This document shows, one piece after another, positions 3,125 to 14,685 of a DNA stretch of 64,000 nucleotides. The first letter of the stretch is position 1; every line of letters starts with the position of its first letter. A model generated the notes under the pieces. It was not told where the DNA came from. It did no database searches and was given only the letters and a program-made list of their open reading frames with translations. The stretch comes from Hyalangium ruber (GTDB taxonomy: Bacteria; Myxococcota; Myxococcia; Myxococcales; Myxococcaceae). Both the position numbers and the translations under genes were made by a program. The stretch spans positions 1 through 64,000 of the forward strand of contig NZ_JAXIVS010000026.1 of NCBI RefSeq assembly GCF_034259325.1. Reading direction: 5' to 3'.

Positions 3125-4010
3125 GGTAGCGGCACCCAGCTCGGCCCGGTGGCGAGTGCGTCGGACAGCTCCAGCTCGGCCCCGAGGGGCACCACCTCGA
3201 AGCGCTCCATCTCGGCCCGGTGGTGCCTACGTCCGACAGTTCCAGCTCGGCACCGTGGCGCCTGCGTCCAACAGCTCCAGCTTGGCCCGAGGCGCCCGCG
3301 TCCGACAGCTCCAGCTCGACCCGAGGGGGCCACCTTGAAGCGCTCCAGCTTGCCCCGGTGGTGAGCGAGTCGGACGGCTCCAGCTCGGCACCCTGGCGCA
3401 CGTCGGACAGCTCCAGCTCGGCACCGTGGCGCGCGCGTCGGGCGGCTCCGGCTCGGCACCGTGGCGCGCGCGTCGGACGGCTCCGGCTCGGCACCCTGAC
3501 GCGCGTCCGACAGCTCCAGCGCGGGCCTGGGGGGCGCCACCTCGAAGCGCTCCAGCTCGGCCCGGGTGCCGCGAACAGCTCCAGCTCGGCCCGCCCCAGT
3601 TCGGCCCAGTGGTGCGCGTCGGACAGCTCCAGCTCGGCCCGGTGGCGCGCGCGTCCGACAGCTCCGGCTCGGCATCGTGGCGCGCGTGGACAGTTCCAGC
3701 TCGGCACCGTGGCGCGCGCGTCCGACAGCTCCAGCTCGGCCCGGTGGCGTGCGCGTCCGACAGCTCCAGCTCGGCACCGTGCGCGCGCGTCTGCCAGCTC
3801 CATCTCGGGCCCGGTGGTGCGTGCGTGGACAGCTCCAACTCGGCCCGAGGCGCCCGCGTCGGACAGCTCCAGCTCGGCACGGTGGCGCCACGTCGAAGCG
3901 CTCCACCTCGGGCCGAGGGGCGCCACCTCGAAACGCCCCAACTCGGGCCTGATGGCGCGCGCGTCCGACAGCTCCAGCTCGGCCCGAGGGGCGCCCCGAC
4001 TGACAAAGAC
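3125..4010. repeat. Minisatellite of 32-36 bp GC-rich units
   Basis: About 0.9 kb of imperfect tandem repeats with two interleaved unit types. One carries GTCCGACAGCTCCAGCTCGG followed by CACCGTGGCGCGCGC. The other carries CACCTCGAAGCGCTCCAGCT. Units vary between roughly 32 and 36 bp, so no single frame runs through them cleanly; long open frames exist in several phases on both strands only because stop codons are rare in the unit. On the reverse strand single units read AELELSDARATV or ELERFEVAP, so the array may derive from a repeat-encoding gene. No spacers or conserved separate repeats are present, so it is not a CRISPR array. Confidence 0.85.
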
Positions 4011-4175
4011 TCCCGAGCGCTAGAGAGAGCGCATTTGTGCGGCACCGCTGGAAATTCGGCGGTTTTTGAGCGTGTCCGCCCAACCGGCCCTGTCGTTCCC
4101 CCCGCCCCATGTGCCGGGTAGGTTCTCCTCCCGTCGCGCGGCGCCCTGTTCGCGCGCCTCTAGGAGCCTCCCGCC

Positions 4176-5363
4176 ATGTCCACCGCCACAGGCCCCCAAA
4201 TACCCGAGGGGCTGATCCTCTTCTCCCTCGGGGATTTCTCTTATGCGTTCCTCCGAGTCCTGGAGACGACCAACCACGGCGAGACGGTGATGATCGTCCA
4301 GCAGCGTTCACGCCTCGGGCCGGAAGGCAACTACATCGCGCGGCGAGTGCTGCCCACGTCGCCCAAGCATGACCCCGAATCGCTCGCCAGGATCCGCGCT
4401 CGGCTTGAGGAGGAGGCGCGGCTGGCCACCTACCTGGATCATCCCAACATCGCCCGGGTTCTGGGGCGGGCCGAGTCTCACGGCGCCCTCTACATCCTCT
4501 GCGAGCGCGTTTCGGGCACGCGGCTAGACACCTACGTTACCGCCGCGTGCATGCGGGGCGTCTGCCTGTCTGCTGGCTTTGCGCTCTACGTGGGCACCGA
4601 AGTGGCGAGCGCTCTACACCACGCGCATACGCGCACAGACGAGAAGGGCCGCCCGCTGGGCATCATTCACCGAGACGTGAACCCCGCCCGCATCTACCTG
4701 AAGGCGGATGGCTCCGTGAGACTCACGGACTTTGCGCTTGCCCGCTCGCTTCTACCGGGCCGGGTGGCAACCACGGTGCCGCGCCCGCAGGGGGATGCCT
4801 TCTACGGCGCCCCCGAGGCACTTCTAGGCGAACCGATGGATCCGCGCTCGGACCTGTTCGCGCTCGGCTTGGTGATGCTGGAGATCGCCACGGGCAGAGG
4901 GCTCTACGGCACGCTCACGGTGCGCACGGCTGACGTAGAGGAGGCCCTAACGCTCGAGGTGCGCGCCAAGGTGGTAGCCGCTCACAACCTCGCGACGATT
5001 GCGGAACTGCCCGAGCAAGTAGACGACTACATTCTGCGGGCAGCCATGTACACCGCCCGAGAGGTGGAGGAACTGACGGAGGATGTTTTCCCCCCGCTGC
5101 GCTCCATCCTCCGAACGTTGCTCCAGCGGCGCCCGGAAGACCGCTACCCATCAGCGGCAGCCCTTGAGGACGATCTACGCAAAGGGCTGGCCGCGTTGGG
5201 CGCTGCCTACGGAGCCCCCGAAGCTATCGCGGAGGCGCGGCGTATGGCGTCAGCGGCCCGGATGCACAAGGACGTAGGCGGCCCGACTGCTCAAGATTCC
5301 GCGTCCACTACACGCAAGCTGTCCGCTGATCACGTCATCACGTCGCCGGGTAGTTCCGCCTAG
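4176..5363 (+). CDS. Ser/Thr kinase-like protein, predicted pseudokinase
   Basis: A 395-aa protein with a Hanks-type kinase fold and no transmembrane segment. Key residues differ from an active kinase: the ATP-binding Lys position (YIARRVLP, about residue 56) is Arg, the catalytic loop reads HRDVNPAR so Asn is replaced by Arg172, and DFG is DFA (185-187). HRD Asp167 and DFA Asp185 remain. There is no recognisable glycine-rich loop. The start is supported by AGGAG at 4161-4165. It follows the active kinase in the same direction after the minisatellite. A regulatory or scaffold role, perhaps with that kinase, is inference; weak catalysis cannot be excluded. Confidence 0.82.
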   Translation: MSTATGPQIPEGLILFSLGDFSYAFLRVLETTNHGETVMIVQQRSRLGPEGNYIARRVLPTSPKHDPESLARIRARLEEEARLATYLDHPNIARVLGRAESHGALYILCERVSGTRLDTYVTAACMRGVCLSAGFALYVGTEVASALHHAHTRTDEKGRPLGIIHRDVNPARIYLKADGSVRLTDFALARSLLPGRVATTVPRPQGDAFYGAPEALLGEPMDPRSDLFALGLVMLEIATGRGLYGTLTVRTADVEEALTLEVRAKVVAAHNLATIAELPEQVDDYILRAAMYTAREVEELTEDVFPPLRSILRTLLQRRPEDRYPSAAALEDDLRKGLAALGAAYGAPEAIAEARRMASAARMHKDVGGPTAQDSASTTRKLSADHVITSPGSSA

Positions 5364-5425
5364 CCCGCGCCCCACTCTTCCCGAACTCAGCCCCGCAGCC
5401 CTGCATCGGCATCGCGCCGAGAGGG

Positions 5426-5464
5426 GATCGGCTTGCCTCTGACCTGGGAGGGGGCAGGCCGATC
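5426..5464. terminator. Hairpin downstream of the pseudokinase gene
   Basis: GATCGGC at 5426-5432 pairs with GCCGATC at 5458-5464, and an inner TGCC/GGCA extends the stem. It begins about 60 bases after the pseudokinase stop. There is no T-run, so it may act only as a transcript-end stabiliser. The rest of the 5364-5658 gap holds two copies of the palindromic GGGGGCGCCC near 5528 and 5547 and no gene I can support. Confidence 0.35.
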
Positions 5465-5658
5465 ACCTCGGAGCGCGCTCCACTGGCCATACCGAGGAGG
5501 ATCGGCGTGGCTGGTGCGAAGCGACTGGGGGCGCCCTGCATCCTGGGGGCGCCCCTGGTCGCGGCAGTTCCTCCCGGTGATCCGCTTCCTCCCTCTCTCC
5601 TGTCCATGCGCCCCCGGCGTGGGTCGTTCACGCTGGCACGGCGCGCGAGGTTTCCCAG

Positions 5659-6156
5659 ATGAAAGGCCACCAAACGGCACGGCCCGCGAAGGGCCCCCCT
5701 CGAAGCAGGGCCCGCAGACGGCCTCCGTTACTTCCAGGGGACGCGAGGAGCCAAGAGCGGCGACTTGGGGCAACGCTCGGACAGACGATGCGGGCCGCAC
5801 GGATGCGTGCGGGGCTCACTCAGGCCGAGATCGCCGCGAGCGTCGGCATTGCTCCAGAGGTGTTCGGGCGGATGGAGCGCGGGAAGATGCTTCCCAGCGT
5901 GCCCACGCTGTTCCGGCTGTGCGTGGCCCTGCGCAGTGGCCCGCACGAGCTGATGGGCTTTGCCCCCCTGGCCAGTCTGCCGCAAGCGGCACAGCGTCAA
6001 GTGCCGCCCGAGTTGGCAGACACGCCCGAGACGCGGCGCCTCTTGCGGCTGCTGGGACGCCTGCAAGGGCTCCAGCTCAAGCTGATCTTGCGCCTTGTGC
6101 TGGCCTTCCTGACGGAGCCCCGGCGCCCCCGGAGCCAGAAGAGGAACCGGAGATGA
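5659..6156 (+). CDS. XRE-family transcriptional regulator
   Basis: A 165-aa protein with a Cro/C1-type helix-turn-helix at about residues 38-98 (RAGLTQAEIAASVGIAPEVF then GRMERGKMLPSVPTL). A basic, probably disordered N-terminus precedes it and a basic helical tail (TRRLLRLLGRL...) follows. It probably binds an operator near its own operon. The stop codon overlaps the ATG of the next frame (6153-6156, ATGA), so the two are coupled. The C-terminal half, including SGPHELMGF, recurs as a fragment at 8787-8978, and the recognition-helix part recurs at 16009-16136, so this family has been duplicated and has decayed locally. Confidence 0.8.
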   Translation: MKGHQTARPAKGPPRSRARRRPPLLPGDARSQERRLGATLGQTMRAARMRAGLTQAEIAASVGIAPEVFGRMERGKMLPSVPTLFRLCVALRSGPHELMGFAPLASLPQAAQRQVPPELADTPETRRLLRLLGRLQGLQLKLILRLVLAFLTEPRRPRSQKRNRR

Positions 6157-6630
6157 ACACGCCCCCGCAGCAAGACGCCCCCACGATGTTCTACCCCCTG
6201 AACCCCTGCGGCCATCTTCGCGGCCCTGGGGGCGCCTGCATCGGATTTCCAGAGTGCAGGCGTGAGCCTGTGTGCGCTGACAAGCTGGGGCCGCTTGTGC
6301 AACGAGTTGGCGAACTCCGCGCGCGGCTCCTGGCCCATCCTTCCCAGGCGTTCACGGGGGAGGGCCACGCCGCCGTGGCGGACAAGCTCGGAGCGGCGGT
6401 AACTCTGGCCGAGTGCCTTAACGCGGTGCTGATCAGCCTGCTCGAAGACAGAGCCCACCTTCAGCCTCATGTGCGTGGAGAAGCCCGCGCCGAAATCCCA
6501 CGCGGCGGCCTCCGAGGTGGTGCGCGTCTTCATGTCCCCGGAAAAGGGCAAGTCCGAGGGTGGAGCGCTGGCGAACCCTACCTACGCGGCGCTCGCCCGC
6601 TTCGCCTTCGACTTCTGGGCACGCTTATGA
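6153..6630 (+). pseudogene. Frameshifted hypothetical gene coupled to the XRE gene
   Basis: The ATG at 6153 opens a frame reading MNTPPQQDAPTMFYPLNPCG with a Cys cluster (CGHL...CIGF...CRREPVC), good to about residue 100 (LISLLEDRAHLQ). Coding character then moves to the next frame, which gives TEPTFSLMCVEKPAPKSHAA and ends FAFDFWARL at 6630. That second frame has a stop at 6430, so the simplest reading is a small indel between about 6431 and 6460 splitting one protein of about 155 aa. An alternative is a separate short ORF from ATG 6469. The 3' end overlaps the convergent gene ending at 6582. Confidence 0.5.
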
Positions 6631-7943
6631 GCTGGCGGCGGGCTGGCGGGGATGCCAGCAATAGTACACAGGTACTGGTATGCCGACTCCCGGGTCTGCC
6701 GTGTGCTGCTGAGCGACCAGACGATCTTTCTGTTGGCGTCCAGCGTCTCGATCAGGATCTTCCCCCGCCAGTCGGGGTTGGTGCGGTCCATGACCTTGCC
6801 ACTCACATTCGGGTGCTTCCCAGCGATCTTCGCGACGACCGAGCGCCACTTGTTGTTCTTCTCCCAGGTCCTGAAACCGGCCAAGTGAGGATCGCTCCAG
6901 AGCCGGAATACGAGTTTCAGCAGGGGGTGGAAGAGGATGTTCGACAACGCGAAGCTGGTCTTCCGAAGCTTGTTGCGGTCCTCGGCGGTCGCGCCGGGCT
7001 TGAACTCCGGGAAGTAATCACTCCACGCCTCGAAGAAGGCGCAGGTGAAGTCGATCAGGTCTTCGTGCCTGGTCTCGTCGGCCTCCAGTCTCGCAAGCCA
7101 CTCAGTTTCACTGCGGACGGCGCCCTCCAGGGTGGCATTGGTCGTCAGCTTCCGCGAGAGGCTACCGATGGTGGTGGAGCGGCACTCGATCTCCTCCCTG
7201 GCGAAAATCTTGGACTTCTCCATCATCCGGTACACAAACCTGCGCGACGGGTTCTTCTCCGGGTTGAGGTCGATTCCAACCGCATTGGACGGCTTCTTCG
7301 CGTCGGAGTTGAACTCGTCATACAGCTTGCCTTCCTCGACACCAGAGAGGTTGTAGATGTCGACGAAGACGAGGTCCTCTTCTGGCTCGTATTTGCCGAG
7401 GAGCTCCAGGATCTCCGCCTTGGCGACGGGGGTACCGTCGACGACAACTTCGTTCGGGACCATGTCGGGGTTGTTCTTCCACTCGGCGAGATAGAAATCG
7501 CCCAGGTGACGGTGGCCTGAATCCGGAATGGTGAGGACGGACTGGATCGTGAGGATGCCGGCCGGCTCGTCGTACGTGACCGCCTCGCCATCCTCCTCCG
7601 CCCGCGCGTTCCACGTCCGGTTGACCGTATAGAGCTTGCCCATCAGTCTCTTTACGGCGATCGCCTGGGCCCGCTTCGGGTCGATATTCAACTCCGTCGA
7701 GGTGATCGGGTAGAGGACGCTGTAGTTTTCCTCGCTGATGTCCCCGGCCGTCCTCCTGAACCCGCGCTGATACTTCGGAGAGTACAGCAGCTTGCTCGTC
7801 TTCAGGCCCTTCGCGATCTGCGCGATCGACACGGTGGCGTTGTAGACCTTCCCGCAGGGCCGGTCGACCGCAGTGACTCCCTCCAGCACCGTGTTGGCAA
7901 AGACCCTAGTCCTCTTCTTCCGCTGCATCGGTTTCCCGTTCAT
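6582..7943 (-). CDS. DGQHR/DndB-like protein
   Basis: A 453-aa protein. Near residues 130-150 it reads GILTIQSVLTIPDSGHRHLG, matching the DGQHR motif region of DndB-type proteins (ParB/sulfiredoxin-like fold), with DSGHR in place of DGQHR. Downstream the typical sequence of beta-strand plus NxD-like segment appears (VFVDIYNL...KLYDEFNSDAKKPS). Family members include DndB, which represses the dnd phosphorothioation genes, and many uncharacterised defence-linked proteins. A strong AGGAGGAG lies just upstream and overlaps the stop of the small gene before it (11-bp gap), so the two are cotranscribed. The basic tail (KRAQKSKAKRA) could bind nucleic acid. The exact role here is unknown. Confidence 0.6.
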   Translation of the reverse strand: MNGKPMQRKKRTRVFANTVLEGVTAVDRPCGKVYNATVSIAQIAKGLKTSKLLYSPKYQRGFRRTAGDISEENYSVLYPITSTELNIDPKRAQAIAVKRLMGKLYTVNRTWNARAEEDGEAVTYDEPAGILTIQSVLTIPDSGHRHLGDFYLAEWKNNPDMVPNEVVVDGTPVAKAEILELLGKYEPEEDLVFVDIYNLSGVEEGKLYDEFNSDAKKPSNAVGIDLNPEKNPSRRFVYRMMEKSKIFAREEIECRSTTIGSLSRKLTTNATLEGAVRSETEWLARLEADETRHEDLIDFTCAFFEAWSDYFPEFKPGATAEDRNKLRKTSFALSNILFHPLLKLVFRLWSDPHLAGFRTWEKNNKWRSVVAKIAGKHPNVSGKVMDRTNPDWRGKILIETLDANRKIVWSLSSTRQTRESAYQYLCTIAGIPASPPPAHKRAQKSKAKRASAA

Positions 7944-7954
7944 GTCGACTCCTC

Positions 7955-8413
7955 CTATTTCACGCAGTACCGCGACTTCTTCCCGGTCGTCTGGCGGTAG
8001 ATCTCCGCCAGCTTGGCGAACGTCCAGACCTCGACGCCCGAGTACGGGGCAGCCAGGCGCGCGACCTCGCCGGTTATTCGGTTGATCTCCTTGTCGATGG
8101 CGGCGTCAGCCCAGTTCCGCTCGGAAAGGACGCGGTGGAGTTCGCCTTCATGCACCAGGAGGATGCCGAGCGAGGCAGATACCGCATCGCGGAGCGTGCT
8201 GATGCTCCCTCTGATCGACTTCGCGTCCCAGACCTCCGAGACCAGGACTTCGATGGCCGCGAAGGGGATCCTGTCCAACTCGGCAACCTGGTGGCGGGTC
8301 AGCCAGACGCCATCAGTCGGGGCCTGCGGCGAGAAGGTCCTCTCGGCCTGGTAACCGAGAGCGGTCCCCACCTCCAAGAACATGTCGGTCGCATTTCTGT
8401 GCCCCGGTCTCAT
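7955..8413 (-). CDS. Small PD-(D/E)XK-like protein, first gene of two-gene operon
   Basis: A 152-aa protein. The pattern TDGVW (Asp34), PFAAIEVLVSE (Glu55, Glu60) and DAKSIRGSISTL (Lys65) followed by SLGILLVHE resembles small PD-(D/E)XK nuclease-fold proteins in which the catalytic Lys has moved to the following helix. I recognise the pattern but not a named family. No good Shine-Dalgarno precedes the ATG at 8413; Met11 is an alternative start. It is the promoter-proximal gene of an operon with the DGQHR-like protein, and the four-heptamer operator begins seven bases from its start. A nuclease role is inference. Confidence 0.5.
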   Translation of the reverse strand: MRPGHRNATDMFLEVGTALGYQAERTFSPQAPTDGVWLTRHQVAELDRIPFAAIEVLVSEVWDAKSIRGSISTLRDAVSASLGILLVHEGELHRVLSERNWADAAIDKEINRITGEVARLAAPYSGVEVWTFAKLAEIYRQTTGKKSRYCVK

Positions 8414-8419
8414 GCCACT

Positions 8420-8472
8420 ACGTTGCCAATTACGTTGCCGATTCGCAACGTATCCCTACGTAGTCGCAACGT
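8420..8472. promoter_or_regulatory. Four ACGTTGC heptamers, two direct and two inverted
   Basis: The heptamer ACGTTGC occurs at 8420-8426 and 8432-8438, and its complement GCAACGT at 8445-8451 and 8466-8472. The offsets are 12, 13 and 21 bp. The inner pair forms a near-palindrome, TACGTTGCcgattCGCAACGTA in essence. The cluster lies immediately upstream of the reverse-strand operon and so probably overlaps its promoter or transcript start. It looks like a multi-site operator for a dimeric regulator. Confidence 0.6.
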
Positions 8473-8536
8473 AAGGTTCGCCAGCAGACAAGCAGCCGAC
8501 CGGGTCGTACAGACGGGCTTGGCGCTCTTGCAACCT

Positions 8537-8786
8537 TCATCTGCGCGGGTTGCTGTAGAGCTCGAAGTCCAGCACGCCACCCACGGTGCCCGGTCCGGAG
8601 AAGTTGGGCACCGGGGTAGTTTCGTTCCATTTGCCCAGCACCACGGTGGCCAGGCCCGAGAACCAGTCCTCTCCCACGGTGTGCCTGGGCAGCGCGCCGA
8701 AGGGCTTCTCGGAGGCGGCGATCTGCGCGGGCCAGTCCGAGGGCACCACGTACGGGAGCAGCACGAGATTGTGCCTGATTCTCGGC
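8537..8786 (-). pseudogene. 3' fragment of an unknown reverse-strand gene
   Basis: A reverse-strand frame reads HNLVLLPYVVPSDWPAQ then ASEKPFGALPRHTVGEDWFSG and ends DFELYSNPRR at 8537. The composition is protein-like, unlike the Arg/Pro-rich text upstream in the same frame, where the strand instead carries an XRE fragment in the other direction. I read it as a truncated gene end joined at about 8780 to the XRE remnant. I do not recognise the family. Confidence 0.4.
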
Positions 8787-8978
8787 AGCGGGCCCCATGA
8801 GTTGATGGGGTTTGCCGAGGTGGAGCCTGGGCACAGCGCCCCCGGGGCAAACACGGTACCGCCAGGCCTGAATGACACGCCCGAGAAGCGCCGCCTCTTG
8901 CGCCGCCTCTCTCGCTTGGACAGTCCGAGGATCAAGGCACTGGCGCGGTTGGTCGCCTTACTTCTGCCGGGCCGCTGA
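8787..8978 (+). pseudogene. C-terminal fragment of an XRE-family regulator
   Basis: The frame reads SGPHELMGFAEVEPG, then NDTPEKRRLLRRLSRLDSPR, ending ARLVALLLPGR. It aligns with the last 73 residues of the XRE protein at 5659-6156 (SGPHELMGFAPL ... DTPETRRLLRLLGRLQ). The helix-turn-helix half is missing; the sequence to its left belongs to an opposite-strand fragment. It therefore marks a recombination junction and is not expected to give a functional regulator. Confidence 0.6.
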
Positions 8979-9014
8979 ACGCCAAGGGCTGCGGGCAACC
9001 TGGATGCGCTAGGA

Positions 9015-9260
9015 GGCCCCCAGCGCTCACGACGCGGGGCGCGTTGATGTGGCCCGCGTCCGACCTGACTGGATGCTCACCGCGAGGCCCAGCGCTCACG
9101 GCGAGGCGCCCGTCGATGTGTTTGGCCTGGACGCGCGCCACGAATCCCCAGCGCTCGCCACGCGGCCTCAGCGCTCGCTACGCGGCCCGCGCCGATATGT
9201 CCGGCCTAGGCACTCGCCACGCGGCCTCAGCGCTCACCACGACCCCCAGCGCTCGTTGGC
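9015..9260. repeat. Left cluster of CCCAGCGCTC(G/A)CCACG repeats
   Basis: At least six imperfect copies of a motif CCCAGCGCTCGCCACGCGG (variants TCAGCGCTCGCTACG, GGCACTCGCCACG, CCAGCGCTCACGACG) lie just upstream of the large STAND gene. A longer shared block, CTGGACGC..CCACGA followed by TCCCCAGCGCTCGCCACG, at 9127-9180 matches the cluster at 14607-14680 in the same orientation. No reading frame here looks coding. Confidence 0.65.
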
Positions 9261-9293
9261 GCCCGACACAGCGATGACGACTGTCGAAGACGC

Positions 9294-9299
9294 TATACT
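9294..9299 (+). promoter_or_regulatory. Candidate -10 element giving a leaderless transcript
   Basis: TATACT at 9294-9299 is close to the consensus -10 hexamer and ends six bases before the ATG at 9306, so the transcript would begin at or next to the start codon. No Shine-Dalgarno is present before this ATG, which fits a leaderless mRNA. No clear -35 hexamer is seen 17 bp upstream. Confidence 0.4.
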
Positions 9300-9305
9300 C
9301 GCAGT

Positions 9306-12300
9306 ATGCGAGTTTCTGGTGGAACGAGCCGCCGAGCCGACGTAGTAATTCTCACAGCGATCAAGCTTGAGTATGACGCCGTGCTTGCTGTCGAAGCCGG
9401 CGCATTTCCGAACTCTCCATGGGAGACGATTGAGCGGGGCCCTCATGGAATGCCCTTGGCCTTCCGCAGTTTCCAGGCGCGCGGAGGGCGTCCCCTACGT
9501 GTTGCTGTCGTGCAGGCTGCGAACATGGGGGCTGTTGAGGCCATCCAAGCATTACTTCCCGTTATTGAGGCGTATGAACCGTCGTGCGTCGCTATGTGCG
9601 GTGTATGCGCGGGACGCCGTGGTAAGACGAACTTAGGTGACGTGATCGCCGCTGACCGACTGTTCTTCCACGACACCGGTAAGCAACTTCCCAACGAAGT
9701 CCAGCAGGACATCACGACTTATAACCTGCTCAACGACTGGAAGGTTGCGATCGAGCAATTCGAATTCGCCAAGCGATTTCGCCATGAGTCTTGGTGGAAT
9801 CAACGTCCAATACCCTTCGAGTGGCAGGAGAATTGGCTCCTAGCGAAGTTGCATGAAGGCTCCTCTGAGCCTTGGAGGCTCCCCGAGTGCGACGTGCTTT
9901 GCCCACAGTGGAAGGAGGTCGTCCTGTCACTGCGGAATTCCGGCCGTCTTGAGCCGAAAGGCCCCTTCGCACTCACCACTGAAGGGCGGGAGCACATTGA
10001 GGATGTGCTGATGCTCAACCGTGGCCGTCTTCCTGACCTCTCGCCTGGGAGCACCGAGTACCCGTTCCGCGTCCATGTGGCTCCCATGGGTAGCGGCAAC
10101 AAGGTCATCGAAGACGAGACCTATTGGAACTTTATCTCCGAGCACATGCGCAAGATGCTGGGGCTGGATATGGAGGCAGCGGCGCTCGGGGTACTCGCCC
10201 ATGGATGGAAATCACGACGCGCTAGAGGTCTCGAGGCCCTAGTCATGAAGGGCGTCATGGACTTCAGCCAGCATGGCCGTGACGACCACTTCAAGGAGTT
10301 CGCCGCCCGGGCTTCGGCTGAGTGTCTACTTGCCTTCTTGCGCGAGAAACTGGAGGTCGTGGTAGTCCCTGACGTTGACGACATCCTTGTTCCTGGAACC
10401 GAACCGCTCCCTGAGCATCCGCCTCCCTCGGCGCTCCTTGTTCCGCGCTATGAGGTAGTGCCCTTCCAGGAAGCAGGGCGTGCAAGACTCCTTGAGGACC
10501 TCGACCGCTGGTGCAACGAAGGACCAGCTGTGGCCGTACGACTCATCCATGCCGAGGGAGGAGTAGGCAAAACGCGTCTGGGTATCCAGTGGACGCAGCG
10601 GCAGAGCGCCGCAGGTTGGGCTGCCGGTTTCCTCCCCCGGGACCCACCCGACGATTGGTTCAGTCGCCTGTGGGAACGGGGGCAGTCCGTTGCAGTCGTG
10701 ATTGACTACTCCGAAAGCCAAGCTTGGCTCAGCACGGCGCTAATGCGCATCCTTCGTTACCAGCAACAAGCGGAGACTGGTGTGCTTCGCCGGATGCGCT
10801 TCCTCCTCCTCGCCCGCAATTGCGGCGACTGGTGGCAGGCACTGCGTCAAACCGATGTTGCGCTACGCAACTGGCTTGATGATGCACCACCGCACGAACT
10901 GCTGCCTCTAGCGATACTAGCCGAGGAACGCGAAAAGTTGTTTCTCCAAGCAGTGGAGGCGTTCGCAAGGGTTCGGGGAAAAACTCGCATCAGCCGTCCA
11001 GGCGTTCAATTGACCGATCAGCGTTTTGCGCGAGTTCTGTATTTGCACATGGCGGCGCTAGCGTTCGTCGACGGACTGCCAATCGCGGCGGACACTCTTA
11101 TGGATGTGATCCTCGATCACGAAGAGCGATTCTGGGGAGCAAATGCCCGGGAACTTGGAGATATCTACGCGGCCCAACAACGATCACTCGCCCGTCAGAT
11201 GGTAGCCGCTGCGACCTTGCGTGGTGGAATAGCCGAAGCCGCTCTTGCCTCTGCCGTTGCCAAGCGGCTTTTCGACCGAACACTTTCTGATCGTGAGGAG
11301 TCGCAATTGCAATTATTGCATCGGGTGTATCAACGCAGCAAAGATAGCTCATACCTGCCGGCACTTGAACCCGATCTCCTTGGCGAGAGCATGGTCCTTC
11401 GCGTCGCCTACCAGCGGATCGATGAAAATCGCGTTCCCATAGATTGGATCGACCGGGTGCTTCGGCCTGACGACGATGCGTACGCCGTGAGGATAGGCCT
11501 GGAAGTGCTTGGCCGCGCATCTGCCACGAACTCCCAAGTGATACGGCCATGGATTGAGCGAATGCTGCTTGCTGCTCCGCTCATACAGCGGGCTCCACTT
11601 GCACTGGCGGCAGCGAGTGCTGTTGCGTTACGCACGGCATTCTCGACGCTCGGTGAGGTACTAGCAGATCGCTTGGAGGCAGACGGTGATCTTTCCGTGG
11701 CACGCGCACTTAAGATGGTGGGTGTACCCTATCCGACCGTATCGTTGCGCCGAGTTGCAGAGTGGGTGAGTCGCACGCTACTGGCTGCCGTGCCTGAGTC
11801 TGAAGACCCACATGTTCGAGTTGAACAGGCAGAATTGCTCTGCAATCAAGCAATTGAGTTAATCGATTTAGGCCAAGATCAGAAGGCGGTAGACGCCAGT
11901 AATCAAGCGATTCAGCATCTCCGGGGTATCGTGAAGAGCACCCCGAATGTCTTCGTCCCCCTTCTTGCGCGCAGTCTCGTCAATCTCAGCATTGGGTTGA
12001 ATAAACTCAAGCGCTACGAAGAAGCAGTGACGACTGCAACAGAGGCGGTTCAGCACTTCCGGCATCTTGCAGAGCGAAACCCCAACATCTTCCTGTCTGA
12101 CCTCCTTACAGCCCTCAACAATCTGGGTGGGAGTCTCAAGCAAATGGGAAGGTCGGAGTGTTTAGCAGTCATAACCGAGGCGGTTCAACTTGGACGCACG
12201 CTGGCCAAACGCAGCCCTGAGACAGTTCTCCGTGATTTCGCTCCCAGTTTATTCAATCTTGGCTTGATGCTGGCTGAACTGGATCGGAAGCAAGAGGCGG

Positions 12301-13313
12301 CGTCTATTATGAGCGAAGCCATCGAGCAATACCGCAAGCTCGCCGCGCGCAACCCTGATGGATTTCTTCCGCTCCTTGCAGATGCATGCAGACAGTTCGG
12401 CTTGATGTTGGGCAATGCCAGGCGACAAGAGGAAGCGCTATCCGCTCTGACTGAGGCGGTTCAGTGCTACCGCCCTCTCGCCAAGCAGAACTCTGGTGAG
12501 TTTCTTCCGCTCCTTGCAGATTGCCTGAATGGAATTGGCGCGATGCGGAGTTTGATGAGAAACAGTGATGATGCCGTATCCGCATGGGTGGATGCACGTC
12601 AATACTATCGTGCTCTCGTCCAACAGGACCCTGCTGCGTTTCTCCCGAATTTTGTGATGTGTCTCGATGCTCTCAGCCAGGAATTGTATCAACTAGGGAG
12701 AAAAGAGGAGTCGGTGTCCACCACTCTCGAAGCGGTTCAGGGTTACCGCACCCTTGCAAAGCTCAATCATGAAGTATTCCTTCCCAAGCTTGCCACCCAC
12801 CTCCACAATCTTGGCCTTGACTTGAGCGAACAGGGGAGAAGAAGTGACGCGCTAGCGGCGGCAAGCGAGGCTGTCCAAATTCGCCGGGAACTTGTCAAGC
12901 GAGACTCGGATGCGTTTCTGCCTGACCTTGCCCTAAGTCTCAACAGCCTCGGTGCGCGAATGAGTGAAGTAGGGCAGCGCAAAGAGGCGCTGGCCGTCAC
13001 GGTCGAGGCAGTTCAGTACACTCGCCCTCTAGCGAAAAGAGAGCCCAATAAATTCCTTCCTGATCTCGCTGCCAGTGTCAATAACCTCGGCGCGAGGCTT
13101 AGCGAACTGGGCCGACATGAAGAGGCGTTGACTGCTCTCCAAGAAGCTATTGATACGCTCTGGCCGTTTTTCGAGCGGGACCCACGTGCTTTTATGGGAG
13201 AGATCTCGACTCCTCTCAACAGTTTGGTGTCCATCCACAGATTCCTTCGCCGCCCTTTCCCTCCGCAACTCGTCAAACGCCTTGTTATATTTCAGCGTCT
13301 CTTGAGTCATTAA
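9306..13313 (+). CDS. Nucleoside phosphorylase-STAND NTPase-TPR protein, putative defence effector
   Basis: A 1335-aa three-part protein. Residues about 10-345 resemble the MTA/SAH nucleosidase and purine phosphorylase fold (CGVCAG..., LGDVIAADRLFF, GLDMEAAALGV, and KGVMDFS with the expected catalytic Asp). Residues about 400-800 form a STAND-type NTPase with Walker A EGGVGKT (417-423) and a Walker B-like VAVVIDYSE near 462-470. Residues about 840-1310 hold ten TPR-like units of 43 residues (SLNNLG..LSELGR.EEAL). STAND proteins with N-terminal effector domains and C-terminal repeat sensors act in antiphage and conflict systems; here the sensor would trigger nucleoside or nucleotide cleavage. 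GC is clearly lower than in neighbours, pointing to transfer. Confidence 0.8.
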   Translation: MRVSGGTSRRADVVILTAIKLEYDAVLAVEAGAFPNSPWETIERGPHGMPLAFRSFQARGGRPLRVAVVQAANMGAVEAIQALLPVIEAYEPSCVAMCGVCAGRRGKTNLGDVIAADRLFFHDTGKQLPNEVQQDITTYNLLNDWKVAIEQFEFAKRFRHESWWNQRPIPFEWQENWLLAKLHEGSSEPWRLPECDVLCPQWKEVVLSLRNSGRLEPKGPFALTTEGREHIEDVLMLNRGRLPDLSPGSTEYPFRVHVAPMGSGNKVIEDETYWNFISEHMRKMLGLDMEAAALGVLAHGWKSRRARGLEALVMKGVMDFSQHGRDDHFKEFAARASAECLLAFLREKLEVVVVPDVDDILVPGTEPLPEHPPPSALLVPRYEVVPFQEAGRARLLEDLDRWCNEGPAVAVRLIHAEGGVGKTRLGIQWTQRQSAAGWAAGFLPRDPPDDWFSRLWERGQSVAVVIDYSESQAWLSTALMRILRYQQQAETGVLRRMRFLLLARNCGDWWQALRQTDVALRNWLDDAPPHELLPLAILAEEREKLFLQAVEAFARVRGKTRISRPGVQLTDQRFARVLYLHMAALAFVDGLPIAADTLMDVILDHEERFWGANARELGDIYAAQQRSLARQMVAAATLRGGIAEAALASAVAKRLFDRTLSDREESQLQLLHRVYQRSKDSSYLPALEPDLLGESMVLRVAYQRIDENRVPIDWIDRVLRPDDDAYAVRIGLEVLGRASATNSQVIRPWIERMLLAAPLIQRAPLALAAASAVALRTAFSTLGEVLADRLEADGDLSVARALKMVGVPYPTVSLRRVAEWVSRTLLAAVPESEDPHVRVEQAELLCNQAIELIDLGQDQKAVDASNQAIQHLRGIVKSTPNVFVPLLARSLVNLSIGLNKLKRYEEAVTTATEAVQHFRHLAERNPNIFLSDLLTALNNLGGSLKQMGRSECLAVITEAVQLGRTLAKRSPETVLRDFAPSLFNLGLMLAELDRKQEAASIMSEAIEQYRKLAARNPDGFLPLLADACRQFGLMLGNARRQEEALSALTEAVQCYRPLAKQNSGEFLPLLADCLNGIGAMRSLMRNSDDAVSAWVDARQYYRALVQQDPAAFLPNFVMCLDALSQELYQLGRKEESVSTTLEAVQGYRTLAKLNHEVFLPKLATHLHNLGLDLSEQGRRSDALAAASEAVQIRRELVKRDSDAFLPDLALSLNSLGARMSEVGQRKEALAVTVEAVQYTRPLAKREPNKFLPDLAASVNNLGARLSELGRHEEALTALQEAIDTLWPFFERDPRAFMGEISTPLNSLVSIHRFLRRPFPPQLVKRLVIFQRLLSH

Positions 13314-13464
13314 CGCAGACACAGGCGAGCGGCGCACCGAGAACAAATTCGAGGCCACAGATGCCTATCAGTGTGTGTCATGAGCAGGTGTGAGGGGAAG
13401 TTGAACTGTCGAAAGCTGATCGATCTGGCCTCTGTTGCGAAATCTCGCCGGACTCCTTGAGGGA

Positions 13465-14481
13465 TCATTCGGACAACAGGATCTCCGTGAGGTTTTCGGG
13501 AGGTGACCACAAACCCGCTCGTGCCTTCACATAGCTCTGGCAAAACGACACCATCTTCTCTTGGTCCCCGAATCTTAGTTTCTGTTTGTCGATTGTGGTA
13601 AGCTGCTCGAAGGCGTTGTTGGTGAACCCGTAGGTAGACAAGAAGAGCCCGCCCTCCTTCTTCTCCTCGACGATCACCTTCAGCAGCTTCTCGACTGCCG
13701 CGCGCCCGACCCGTGTGGAGGAGCGCCAATGCTTAATCTCGACGTAATATTCAGCGCGCTTCCCCTGCACCAAGCAGGTAAGAATGATGTCCTTGCCCCC
13801 ATCTTTTGACCCGGGTGTGAGTGTCACACCGAACCCCAAGCCGTCAAAGACCTCGGCCATCACTCGTTCGACGTCACGCCATTCCAATTGGGCAAGCGCG
13901 GTCGGCGCAGCCGCGATCAGACGTGCAAGCCGACCGCTCAGCTCGCGCATCATCATACGAACCTCTGCCTCAACATCAACGTTCTGGTCGCGTAGGCGAT
14001 TGACCCAGTGCTGTAATCCGCCAATGTCGAGGAGCTCGATCCGTAGTGGCAGCGTCTTCGCAACGGCCGCATTCGCATCTTTCGAGAACTCGCCGTTGCT
14101 GACTAGAACTACTCGGCTGAGACCTTGCAGCAATGCGGCACCAATCAGCTGCTGCACGCTGGTCATGGGCACGTGTCGGGTGCCTTTGTAGAACTTGGCC
14201 TGAATTCCGATGGTCTCCCCCGCGTCAGCGGCGCCTTCAATGCTCGTCCGACGAGCCCAGAAGTCGATGCCTTGATCGCCTAGTCCCCCTGTGTATTCGA
14301 GTTCATAGCCCTCTTGCTTGAACAGCGGCTCAAGAACCTTCCCGAGCACCACCTCCGTCTCCTGCGGCTCCATGTTGGTGTCATCGCGAAGGCGGGCGAT
14401 GTGCCCATCAAGGAAGTCCCATTGGTCGGGGCTCGCGCTTTTCATGGATACCCCGAGACCGCTGAACGATTCATGTGGCAT
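13465..14481 (-). CDS. Protein with two Mrr-like restriction nuclease domains
   Basis: A 338-aa protein with two PD-(D/E)XK domains of the Mrr_cat type in tandem. Domain 1 (about 45-165) has GDQGIDFWA (Asp73) and IGIQAKFY (Gln94, Lys96). Domain 2 (about 200-310) has GGKDI (Asp231) and YYVEIKHW (Glu248, Lys250). Both triads look complete. Mrr-type enzymes cut modified foreign DNA, and this fold also serves as effector in other defence systems. It converges on the STAND gene with a 150-bp gap. The ATG at 14481 abuts GGAGGT with no spacing; Met13 at 14445 is a likely true start, overlapping the stop of a ten-codon leader frame. Confidence 0.75.
   Translation of the reverse strand: MPHESFSGLGVSMKSASPDQWDFLDGHIARLRDDTNMEPQETEVVLGKVLEPLFKQEGYELEYTGGLGDQGIDFWARRTSIEGAADAGETIGIQAKFYKGTRHVPMTSVQQLIGAALLQGLSRVVLVSNGEFSKDANAAVAKTLPLRIELLDIGGLQHWVNRLRDQNVDVEAEVRMMMRELSGRLARLIAAAPTALAQLEWRDVERVMAEVFDGLGFGVTLTPGSKDGGKDIILTCLVQGKRAEYYVEIKHWRSSTRVGRAAVEKLLKVIVEEKKEGGLFLSTYGFTNNAFEQLTTIDKQKLRFGDQEKMVSFCQSYVKARAGLWSPPENLTEILLSE
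14442..14474 (-). other. Possible ten-codon leader frame of the Mrr-like gene
   Basis: The reverse-strand GGAGGT at 14487-14482 is seven bases from an ATG at 14474 that reads MNRSAVSGYP and stops with TGA at 14444-14442. That TGA overlaps an ATG at 14445-14443, which is Met13 of the Mrr-like protein (ATGA overlap). The spacing is better for this short frame than for the longest nuclease start, suggesting translational coupling. This could be chance. Confidence 0.35.
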
Positions 14482-14599
14482 ACCTCCACTAATACTACCT
14501 AGTGATTTCGAGGCGTCCCCAGCGGAGATTCCCGCCGGAAAACCGCTGGAGAGCCCGAAGAAAGTGCCCGAGTAGTACTAGCACCACAAGGCCCGCATC

Positions 14600-14685
14600 C
14601 GGTCCGTCTGGACGCACCACGAGATCCCAGCGCTCGCCACGAGGCCCCAGCGCCCGCCACGAGCCCAAGCGCTCGCCACGTCCAC
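14600..14685. repeat. Right cluster of CCCAGCGCTCGCCACG repeats
   Basis: Three copies (CCCAGCGCTCGCCACGAGG, CCCAGCGCCCGCCACGAG, CCAAGCGCTCGCCACG) preceded by CTGGACGCACCACGAGA. The block is in the same orientation as the left cluster near 9127-9180. The two clusters bracket the STAND gene and the Mrr-like gene. Confidence 0.65.

What the first reader, a model, noticed from the sequence alone, without database searches (positions are those of the whole stretch)
6582..8413. Two-gene operon: small PD-(D/E)XK-like protein plus DGQHR/DndB-like protein
Seen: an 11-bp gap with the stop of gene 1 inside the Shine-Dalgarno of gene 2, an IPDSGHRHLG motif, and a D34...E55...K65 nuclease-like pattern. 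Known: DGQHR proteins include DndB and relatives beside DNA modification or defence genes. Here no dnd, ssp or methylase genes accompany them. Inferred: a compact stand-alone module, perhaps a self-contained restriction or sensing system.
Basis: partly seen in the sequence, partly recalled or inferred. Interest (0 to 1): 0.75.

Follow-up and report, generated by a model that had tools for sequence, protein, structure and literature searches.

The report
Orphan self-regulated ParB-like gene pair
Two tightly coupled bacterial genes, sitting behind an unusual DNA control site, encode a small protein of unknown type and a nucleotide-switch-type protein whose closest kin found control dormancy in Bacillus viruses; it looks like a small, self-controlled acquired module, but that it cuts DNA is unproven.

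Summary
The operon is real: both frames show coding statistics, 11 bp separate the genes, and gene 2's Shine-Dalgarno overlaps gene 1's stop. Gene 2 is a ParB/sulfiredoxin-fold protein of the DGQHR/DndB superfamily, but below the DGQHR cut-off and without a Pfam DndB hit; its nearest kin found are YopQ proteins of SPbeta-like phages, encoded in a lysogeny-control operon. Gene 1's nuclease label rests on a D-E-K pattern that 1690 of 2000 shuffles also contain; no family, PDB or fold match supports it, although a low-confidence model has a compatible strand/helix order. It resembles, with different spacing, the TACGN10CGTA sites through which DndB represses its own operon. The pair lies in about 2.3 kb that interrupts a repeated kinase/regulator cassette; single-protein searches found neither gene in 194 other genomes of the phylum. 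Best reading: an acquired, autoregulated two-gene module in which gene 2 is an NTP-responsive DNA-binding regulator and gene 1 its effector or partner. New variant of a known kind; function inferred.

The parts
7955..8413 (-). gene 1, 152 aa, orphan small protein; candidate PD-(D/E)XK-like effector (unproven)
   Evidence: ORF; GC3 0.856; no family match; low-confidence model with helix, three strands, helix, strand order
6582..7943 (-). gene 2, 453 aa, ParB/Srx-fold protein of the DGQHR superfamily, YopQ branch (fold at residues about 22-222; QR at 59-60, DSGHR at 141-145, YxxxN at 208-212)
   Evidence: TIGR03187, 24.8 bits; YopQ profile; fold
7944..7954 (-). 11-bp gap; Shine-Dalgarno AGGAGG of gene 2 overlaps the stop of gene 1
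8419..8473 (.). predicted operator: half-sites TACGTTGC at 8419 and 8431, GCAACGTA at 8445 and 8466, TACGTA at 8457; five bases upstream of gene 1's start
   Evidence: six TACG/CGTA words in 64 bp, at most 4 elsewhere in the window
8431..8452 (.). perfect dyad TACGTTGC-N6-GCAACGTA, no other copy within 2 mismatches in the genome assembly
   Evidence: (0.05 expected in the window at up to 3 mismatches)
6456..8769 (.). stretch carrying the pair that is missing from paralogous kinase/XRE/third-gene cassettes; its outer edges may be host-gene remnants

Best explanation
An acquired, autoregulated two-gene module. Shown by sequence: a tightly coupled pair behind a multi-copy inverted-repeat site. 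Supported by profile and model: gene 2 has a ParB/sulfiredoxin-type domain followed by a mostly helical part, as in phage YopQ. Inferred: gene 2, like DndB, binds the upstream inverted repeats as an NTP-responsive autorepressor and keeps gene 1, the small effector or partner, at a low level. A change in nucleotide state or invading DNA (phage or plasmid) would release or activate gene 1. Gene 1 may be a PD-(D/E)XK-like nuclease, making the pair a minimal restriction or toxin-antitoxin-like device, but this last step is only weakly supported.
For: Coding statistics and coupling. Gene 2: DGQHR model E 1.7e-5; YopQ profile 25.3 bits against at most 1.3 in 200 shuffles; hhalign over 302 columns, probability 84.8; rows 1-24 of the 28 fold rows shown are ParB, Noc, KorB, Srx, BrxU, SspE, DndI or Spo0J (Z 7.0 to 2.3). 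Operator: perfect dyad, single in the assembly, just before gene 1. DndB binds two regions of its own promoter, each with a TACGN10CGTA palindrome (PMC4507180, abstract and passages). Junctions with repeated cassettes and absence from 194 other genomes of the phylum in single-protein searches fit acquisition. YopQ lies in the yopM-yopR operon that PMC8612738 links to SPbeta lysogeny control (passages and section 11).
Against: No test shows which protein binds the site. The dyad is TACG-N14-CGTA, not N10, and no TACGN10CGTA exists in the window. Upstream of other DGQHR genes of the phylum such a site was not seen (at most 3 words per 64 bp in 39 regions, though many of these genes may lie inside operons), so the likeness to DndB's site may be coincidence. 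Gene 1 has no detected homologue and its motif is at chance level. Another regulator, for example the XRE protein at 5659-6156, could use the operator. Fold support is moderate: all Z are under 8, and Foldseek alone had no PDB match at E <= 0.001. NTP binding is inferred from fold and kin only. The YopR-type partner conserved beside YopQ is missing here.
Confidence: 0.45

Rival explanations
1. Minimal restriction or abortive-infection system: gene 1 is a PD-(D/E)XK nuclease and gene 2 the NTP-using sensor or targeting subunit.
For: Helix, strand, strand, strand, helix, strand order with D34 before the second and E55 in the third strand in the low-confidence model; proteins with the same fold are joined to nuclease domains in GmrSD and DndI/SspE (PMC4619093 and PMC11662687, passages); Mrr and PNP-TPR genes within 6 kb.
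Against: Model mean pLDDT 53 with no PDB fold match at E <= 0.001; motif at chance; no family or PDB sequence match; no DNA modification gene among 18 window proteins scanned.
Confidence: 0.25
2. Remnant of a prophage or integrative-element control cassette: gene 2 is a YopQ-type lysogeny or maintenance regulator and gene 1 its small regulatory partner.
For: Nearest relatives of gene 2 found are YopQ proteins of SPbeta-like phages, which lie in a lysogeny-control operon; operator-type repeats.
Against: In 9 of 9 loci checked the YopQ gene is followed by a YopR-type gene (six of them built the profile; the three divergent ones score 213, 124 and 24 bits), and 0 of 303 window frames match that profile at E <= 10. 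Eight neighbouring proteins show no phage structural family in PHROGs, only kinase, regulator, restriction and unknown ones. Gene 2 has about 85 fewer N-terminal residues than YopQ.
Confidence: 0.2
3. Decayed or neutral insertion: an orphan pair without present function.
For: No close relative found: both genes in 194 other genomes of the phylum, phages, plasmids and viral contigs (the one phage match to gene 2 is remote), gene 2 alone in two scans of the genome collection.
Against: Intact frames, strong GC3 pattern, intact Shine-Dalgarno and intact dyad.
Confidence: 0.1

Closest known systems
YopQ of SPbeta-like phages (ParB_N_Srx superfamily protein)
   Same: Colinear over gene 2 residues 32-408 (hhalign 302 columns, 20% identity); shared Q59-R60, N112, D141, H144, R145 columns; ParB/Srx-type domain.
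   Different: YopQ has about 85 more N-terminal residues and is followed by a YopR/MrpR-type gene and preceded by an integrase- or recombinase-annotated gene (6 of 6 annotated loci); here the partner is gene 1 with its own repeats upstream.
DndB (phosphorothioation regulator)
   Same: Same superfamily; DndB represses its own operon through inverted repeats with TACG/CGTA half-sites (PMC4507180); similar outer half-site here.
   Different: No Pfam DndB match at E <= 1, no DndC in the genome, dyad spacing N14 not N10, DSGHR in place of DGQHR.
GmrSD / SspE / DndI / BrxU (DUF262 plus HNH)
   Same: ParB/Srx-fold domain with a nuclease partner; rows for BrxU, SspE and DndI in the fold comparison (the BrxU rows have rmsd near 18).
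   Different: No DUF262 or HNH match in gene 2 at E <= 1; the partner is a separate 152-aa protein of unproven type.
dpd-like 7-deazaguanine cluster of the same genome (contig C15; name recalled)
   Same: Carries three further DGQHR-family proteins over the cut-off.
   Different: Full-cut-off members in a multi-gene cluster on another contig; different neighbours.

Membership tests
DGQHR domain (TIGR03187) | Score above the curated cut-off of 58.85 bits | tested here: not met
   24.8 bits, E 1.7e-5, residues 185-340; 25.2 bits by genome search
DGQHR domain (TIGR03187) | QR pair, DGQHR pentapeptide, FxxxN (as listed in PMC4619093) | tested here: inconclusive
   Q59-R60 present; DSGHR instead of DGQHR; Y208-x3-N212 instead of FxxxN (sequence, alignment)
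ParB/sulfiredoxin fold | Fold of the N-terminal NTP-binding domain | tested here: met
   Rows 1-24 of 28 shown are of this superfamily, Z 7.0 to 2.3, residues about 22-222; the four other rows have Z 2.0-2.3. Caveats: every Z under 8; Foldseek's best PDB match is ParB at E 0.22
DndB | Match to Pfam DndB (PF14072) and linkage to dnd genes | tested here: not met
   No Pfam DndB hit at E <= 1; no DndC match in the genome
DndB | TACGN10CGTA operator | tested here: not met
   0 in the window; TACG-N14-CGTA at 8431
YopQ branch | Colinear sequence similarity to YopQ | tested here: met
   hhalign probability 84.8, 302 columns; 25.3 bits vs at most 1.3 in 200 shuffles
YopQ branch | YopR/MrpR-type gene directly downstream | tested here: not met
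   0 of 303 window frames of 100 aa or more match a profile of six such proteins at E <= 10
PD-(D/E)XK nuclease | alpha-beta-beta-beta-alpha-beta core | tested here: inconclusive
   Compatible order in a model of mean pLDDT 53 from one sequence; no PDB match at E <= 0.001
PD-(D/E)XK nuclease | D in strand 2 and (D/E)xK in strand 3 | tested here: inconclusive
   D34 and E55 placed so in a poor model, but E55-V-L lacks K; D63-A-K65 lies later; pattern common in shuffles
PD-(D/E)XK nuclease | DNA cleavage | not testable with these tools
   bench assay needed
Toxin-antitoxin-like autoregulated pair | Tight two-gene operon with a dyad at its start | tested here: met
   that the dyad regulates is not tested
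Toxin-antitoxin-like autoregulated pair | One product toxic, the other neutralising | not testable with these tools
   expression assay needed

The most novel reading that the evidence does not exclude
A stand-alone two-gene conflict system in which a YopQ/DndB-like ParB-fold protein, acting as a nucleotide-gated switch on its own TACGTTGC operator, senses invading DNA or nucleotide change and unleashes a small nuclease, without any DNA modification machinery: a restriction-like device built from a regulator family so far known from phosphorothioation control and phage lysogeny.
Probability: 0.17. Interest if true: 0.75.

Novelty: new variant of a known kind. Interest (0 to 1): 0.45.

Why it matters
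What YopQ does in SPbeta lysogeny, and what stand-alone DGQHR proteins do, is open as far as the passages I read go. A two-gene operon with an intact, single-copy operator gives a very small testable setting: one regulator, one partner, one site. If gene 2 binds it in a nucleotide-dependent way, DndB-type regulation would extend beyond phosphorothioation; if gene 1 cuts nucleic acid, a minimal new defence module would follow.

Tried and rejected
PADLOC PDC-S05 hits to gene 1 (E 0.04 and 0.053) looked like a lead to a defence family. A phylum search with one of the two models (39 of 193 genomes at E <= 0.01) and a look at 7 loci (two came out in a wrong frame) showed VWLTQxxxAEL in four and AWLSLGQMAEL in one, like gene 1's VWLTRHQVAEL (RhuM-type proteins, name recalled). 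The match is this short stretch and no evidence for a nuclease.

Gene 1 matches at E <= 0.1 (12 other places in 11 other genomes of 193) were translated and read: unrelated frames or proteins (two look like sigma factors); rejected by eye as chance, as expected for that threshold. Gene 1 model against PDB: 289 matches at E <= 10, none at E <= 0.001; not used.

Foldseek for gene 2 against PDB gave none at E <= 0.001 (best ParB, 0.22); the second look supports the fold, and the viral library gave 6 at E <= 0.001, among them a DUF262 and an HNH-annotated protein. Four further below-cut-off DGQHR matches of the phylum were fetched (G089, G082, G122, G103): three are ordinary DGQHR proteins, the fourth showed no long frame with the motif; none is BLAST-similar to gene 2 at E <= 1. 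hhalign of gene 2 to ten DGQHR proteins of the phylum is weak (probability 3.8, E 0.011). A profile of gene 2 plus 23 YopQ proteins hit 2 other of 193 genomes (G136 E 3e-11, at the place of one of its DGQHR matches; G112 E 4e-4, an ordinary DGQHR protein).

TACG-type operators at other DGQHR genes: 39 upstream regions (some genes twice, one region only 34 bp) had at most 3 words in 64 bp, and 1 of 39 a TACG-N8-16-CGTA; of 51 YopQ loci 1 had one. Promoter/terminator scan of 6400-8700: none. Rfam on 4000-14600: none. The insert in plasmids: none.

Dropped rows: A9 used 23 and A10 20 of the 51 YopQ loci; L100 was left out because its stated range ran over a stop codon; the profile used the 44 distinct of 51 proteins, one of them short. 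The DNA search scored 14 of 209 candidates in the own genome, so a weak further copy of the insert could be missed.

Full report
What is there. Gene 1 (8413-7955, minus strand, 152 aa) and gene 2 (7943-6582, 453 aa) are separated by 11 bp, with AGGAGG starting within gene 1's TAG and ending 7 nt before gene 2's ATG. Both have the same codon signature (GC3 0.86 highest, GC2 0.43-0.46 lowest), an order that no other frame over them shows. Gene 1 shows no Shine-Dalgarno, so its start is a little uncertain (leaderless, or M11).

Gene 2. It matches the DGQHR model weakly (24.8 bits, cut-off 58.85), phrog_5732 (E 4e-4) and no Pfam DndB model at E <= 1. A protein search of phages found one relative, in Psychrobacillus phage Perkons (33% over a quarter of the protein, E 8e-4). 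That protein's family is YopQ of SPbeta-like phages (34 records). A profile from 44 distinct proteins of 51 viral loci scores gene 2 at 25.3 bits; 200 shuffles reach at most 1.3, and of 303 window frames only gene 2's own stands out. Profile comparison aligns 302 columns in order (probability 84.8, E 6.5e-6 for this one comparison), much better than with ten DGQHR proteins of the same phylum (3.8). A model from 24 sequences (mean pLDDT 71.9) aligns at residues about 22-222 with ParB, Noc, KorB, sulfiredoxin, BrxU, SspE, DndI and Spo0J; these fill rows 1-24 of the 28 shown (Z 7.0 to 2.3; the other four 2.0-2.3). This is moderate support: every Z is under 8, the BrxU rows have rmsd near 18, and Foldseek alone was not significant. 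The residues that PMC4619093 (passages) names for the DGQHR domain are present in variant form: Q59-R60, DSGHR for DGQHR, YxxxN for FxxxN. So gene 2 is a divergent ParB/Srx-fold protein of the YopQ branch. NTP and DNA binding are inferred from kin (one DndB-like protein was seen to bind ATP and GTP, PMC12704722, passages).

Gene 1. No match in Pfam, NCBIfam, PHROGs or PDB sequences; 0 of 194 other genomes of the phylum at E <= 0.001; the 12 weak places at E <= 0.1 were judged noise. It was also sought in phages, plasmids and viral contigs, but not in the large genome collection. A single-sequence model (pLDDT 53) has the helix, three strands, helix, strand order expected of PD-(D/E)XK enzymes with D34 and E55 at suitable places, but no fold match. 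I put the nuclease reading at about one in three.

The operator. Directly upstream of gene 1 lie TACGTTGC at 8419 and 8431 and GCAACGTA at 8445 and 8466, with TACGTA at 8457. Positions 8431-8452 form a perfect dyad with 8-bp arms, expected 0.05 times in the window even with 3 mismatches. In the genome assembly the eight other places within 3 mismatches all have 3, and 9 found in all against 14 for the control means that those eight are chance. DndB of Salmonella represses its own operon by binding two regions with TACGN10CGTA palindromes (PMC4507180, abstract and passages). Here the same outer half-site appears with 14 rather than 10 bases between. The likeness could be coincidence: upstream of other DGQHR genes of the phylum it was not seen.

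Origin. Window 4000-6455 is a kinase/XRE/third-gene cassette repeated at 94% and 87% identity on two other contigs, and 8770-9028 is the tail of another XRE gene also found elsewhere. Three paralogous copies continue alike beyond the point at which the window departs (6455/6456). For the 2314 bases between, no second copy in the genome was listed (which scored 14 of 209 candidates). Their GC (about 0.58-0.64 over most of the stretch) is lower than just outside (0.66-0.70), though the PNP-TPR gene further on is lower still. Short matches in two related genomes at 6472-6520 and 8702-8745 (44-49 bp, 82%) suggest that the edges are host-gene remnants and the acquired part is smaller. The stretch matches no plasmid. 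Close relatives were not found in viral contigs (both genes) or, for gene 2's motif region only, in two scans of the genome collection that reach only close relatives. The pair is therefore probably a recent, rare acquisition; a wider distribution is not excluded.

Surroundings. Eighteen window proteins were scanned with Pfam and eight each with PADLOC and PHROGs: kinases, the XRE protein, a PNP-TPR protein (9306-13313, PADLOC PDC-M60C), an Mrr-type restriction protein (13465-14481) and, further on, housekeeping and regulatory proteins; no DNA methylase and no phage structural family. DndC has no match in the genome. Three other DGQHR proteins sit on contig C15 in what looks like a 7-deazaguanine DNA modification cluster (name recalled).

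Mechanism and verdict. The anatomy (tight pair, dyad, ParB-fold regulator-like gene 2) best fits an autoregulated module in which gene 2 controls gene 1 in response to nucleotides or foreign DNA. YopQ kin lie in an operon linked to SPbeta lysogeny control (PMC8612738, passages and section 11); PMC10516654 (passages) counts yopQ among the core genes probably active in lysogeny. In the six annotated phage loci an integrase- or recombinase-annotated gene precedes YopQ (6 of 6), and the gene after it is annotated as integrase in 4 of 6; by profile the following gene is YopR-type in 9 of 9 loci checked, six of them used to build the profile. No window frame matches that profile (0 of 303), so gene 2 has lost, or never had, that partner. 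Whether the pair is a defence system is open. The paper searches listed no title or abstract describing such a pair; full texts were not read for this.

Noticed in passing
locus L022 (contig C15, about 91-100 kb): Cluster with a QueE-like gene, a DpdA-like gene and three DGQHR/DGQQR proteins plus an HNH-like protein: looks like a 7-deazaguanine DNA modification (dpd-type) cluster; functions judged by eye and recalled, only the DGQHR matches tested. Two DGQHR matches about 2.4 kb apart occur in several other genomes of the phylum.
   Followed up: partly
window 9306-14481, with repeats at 9132-9241 and 14617-14680: A PNP-TPR gene (PDC-M60C match) and a divergent Mrr restriction gene lie between two arrays of a similar roughly 20-bp repeat, which also occurs on contig C22; may mark a mobile defence cassette.
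   Followed up: partly
window 3136-3994: Degenerate 35-bp tandem array (about 25 copies) that keeps long ORFs open in several frames.
   Followed up: no
window 4000-6455 and contigs C16, C22, C13, C1: Repeated kinase/XRE/third-gene cassettes or parts of them, 84-94% alike, which seem to serve as insertion neighbourhoods.
   Followed up: partly
L102, L103, L099: Divergent YopQ-like viral proteins, each followed at once by a YopR-type gene (124, 24 and 213 bits to a profile of six): the pairing extends beyond the annotated SPbeta-like phages.
   Followed up: yes
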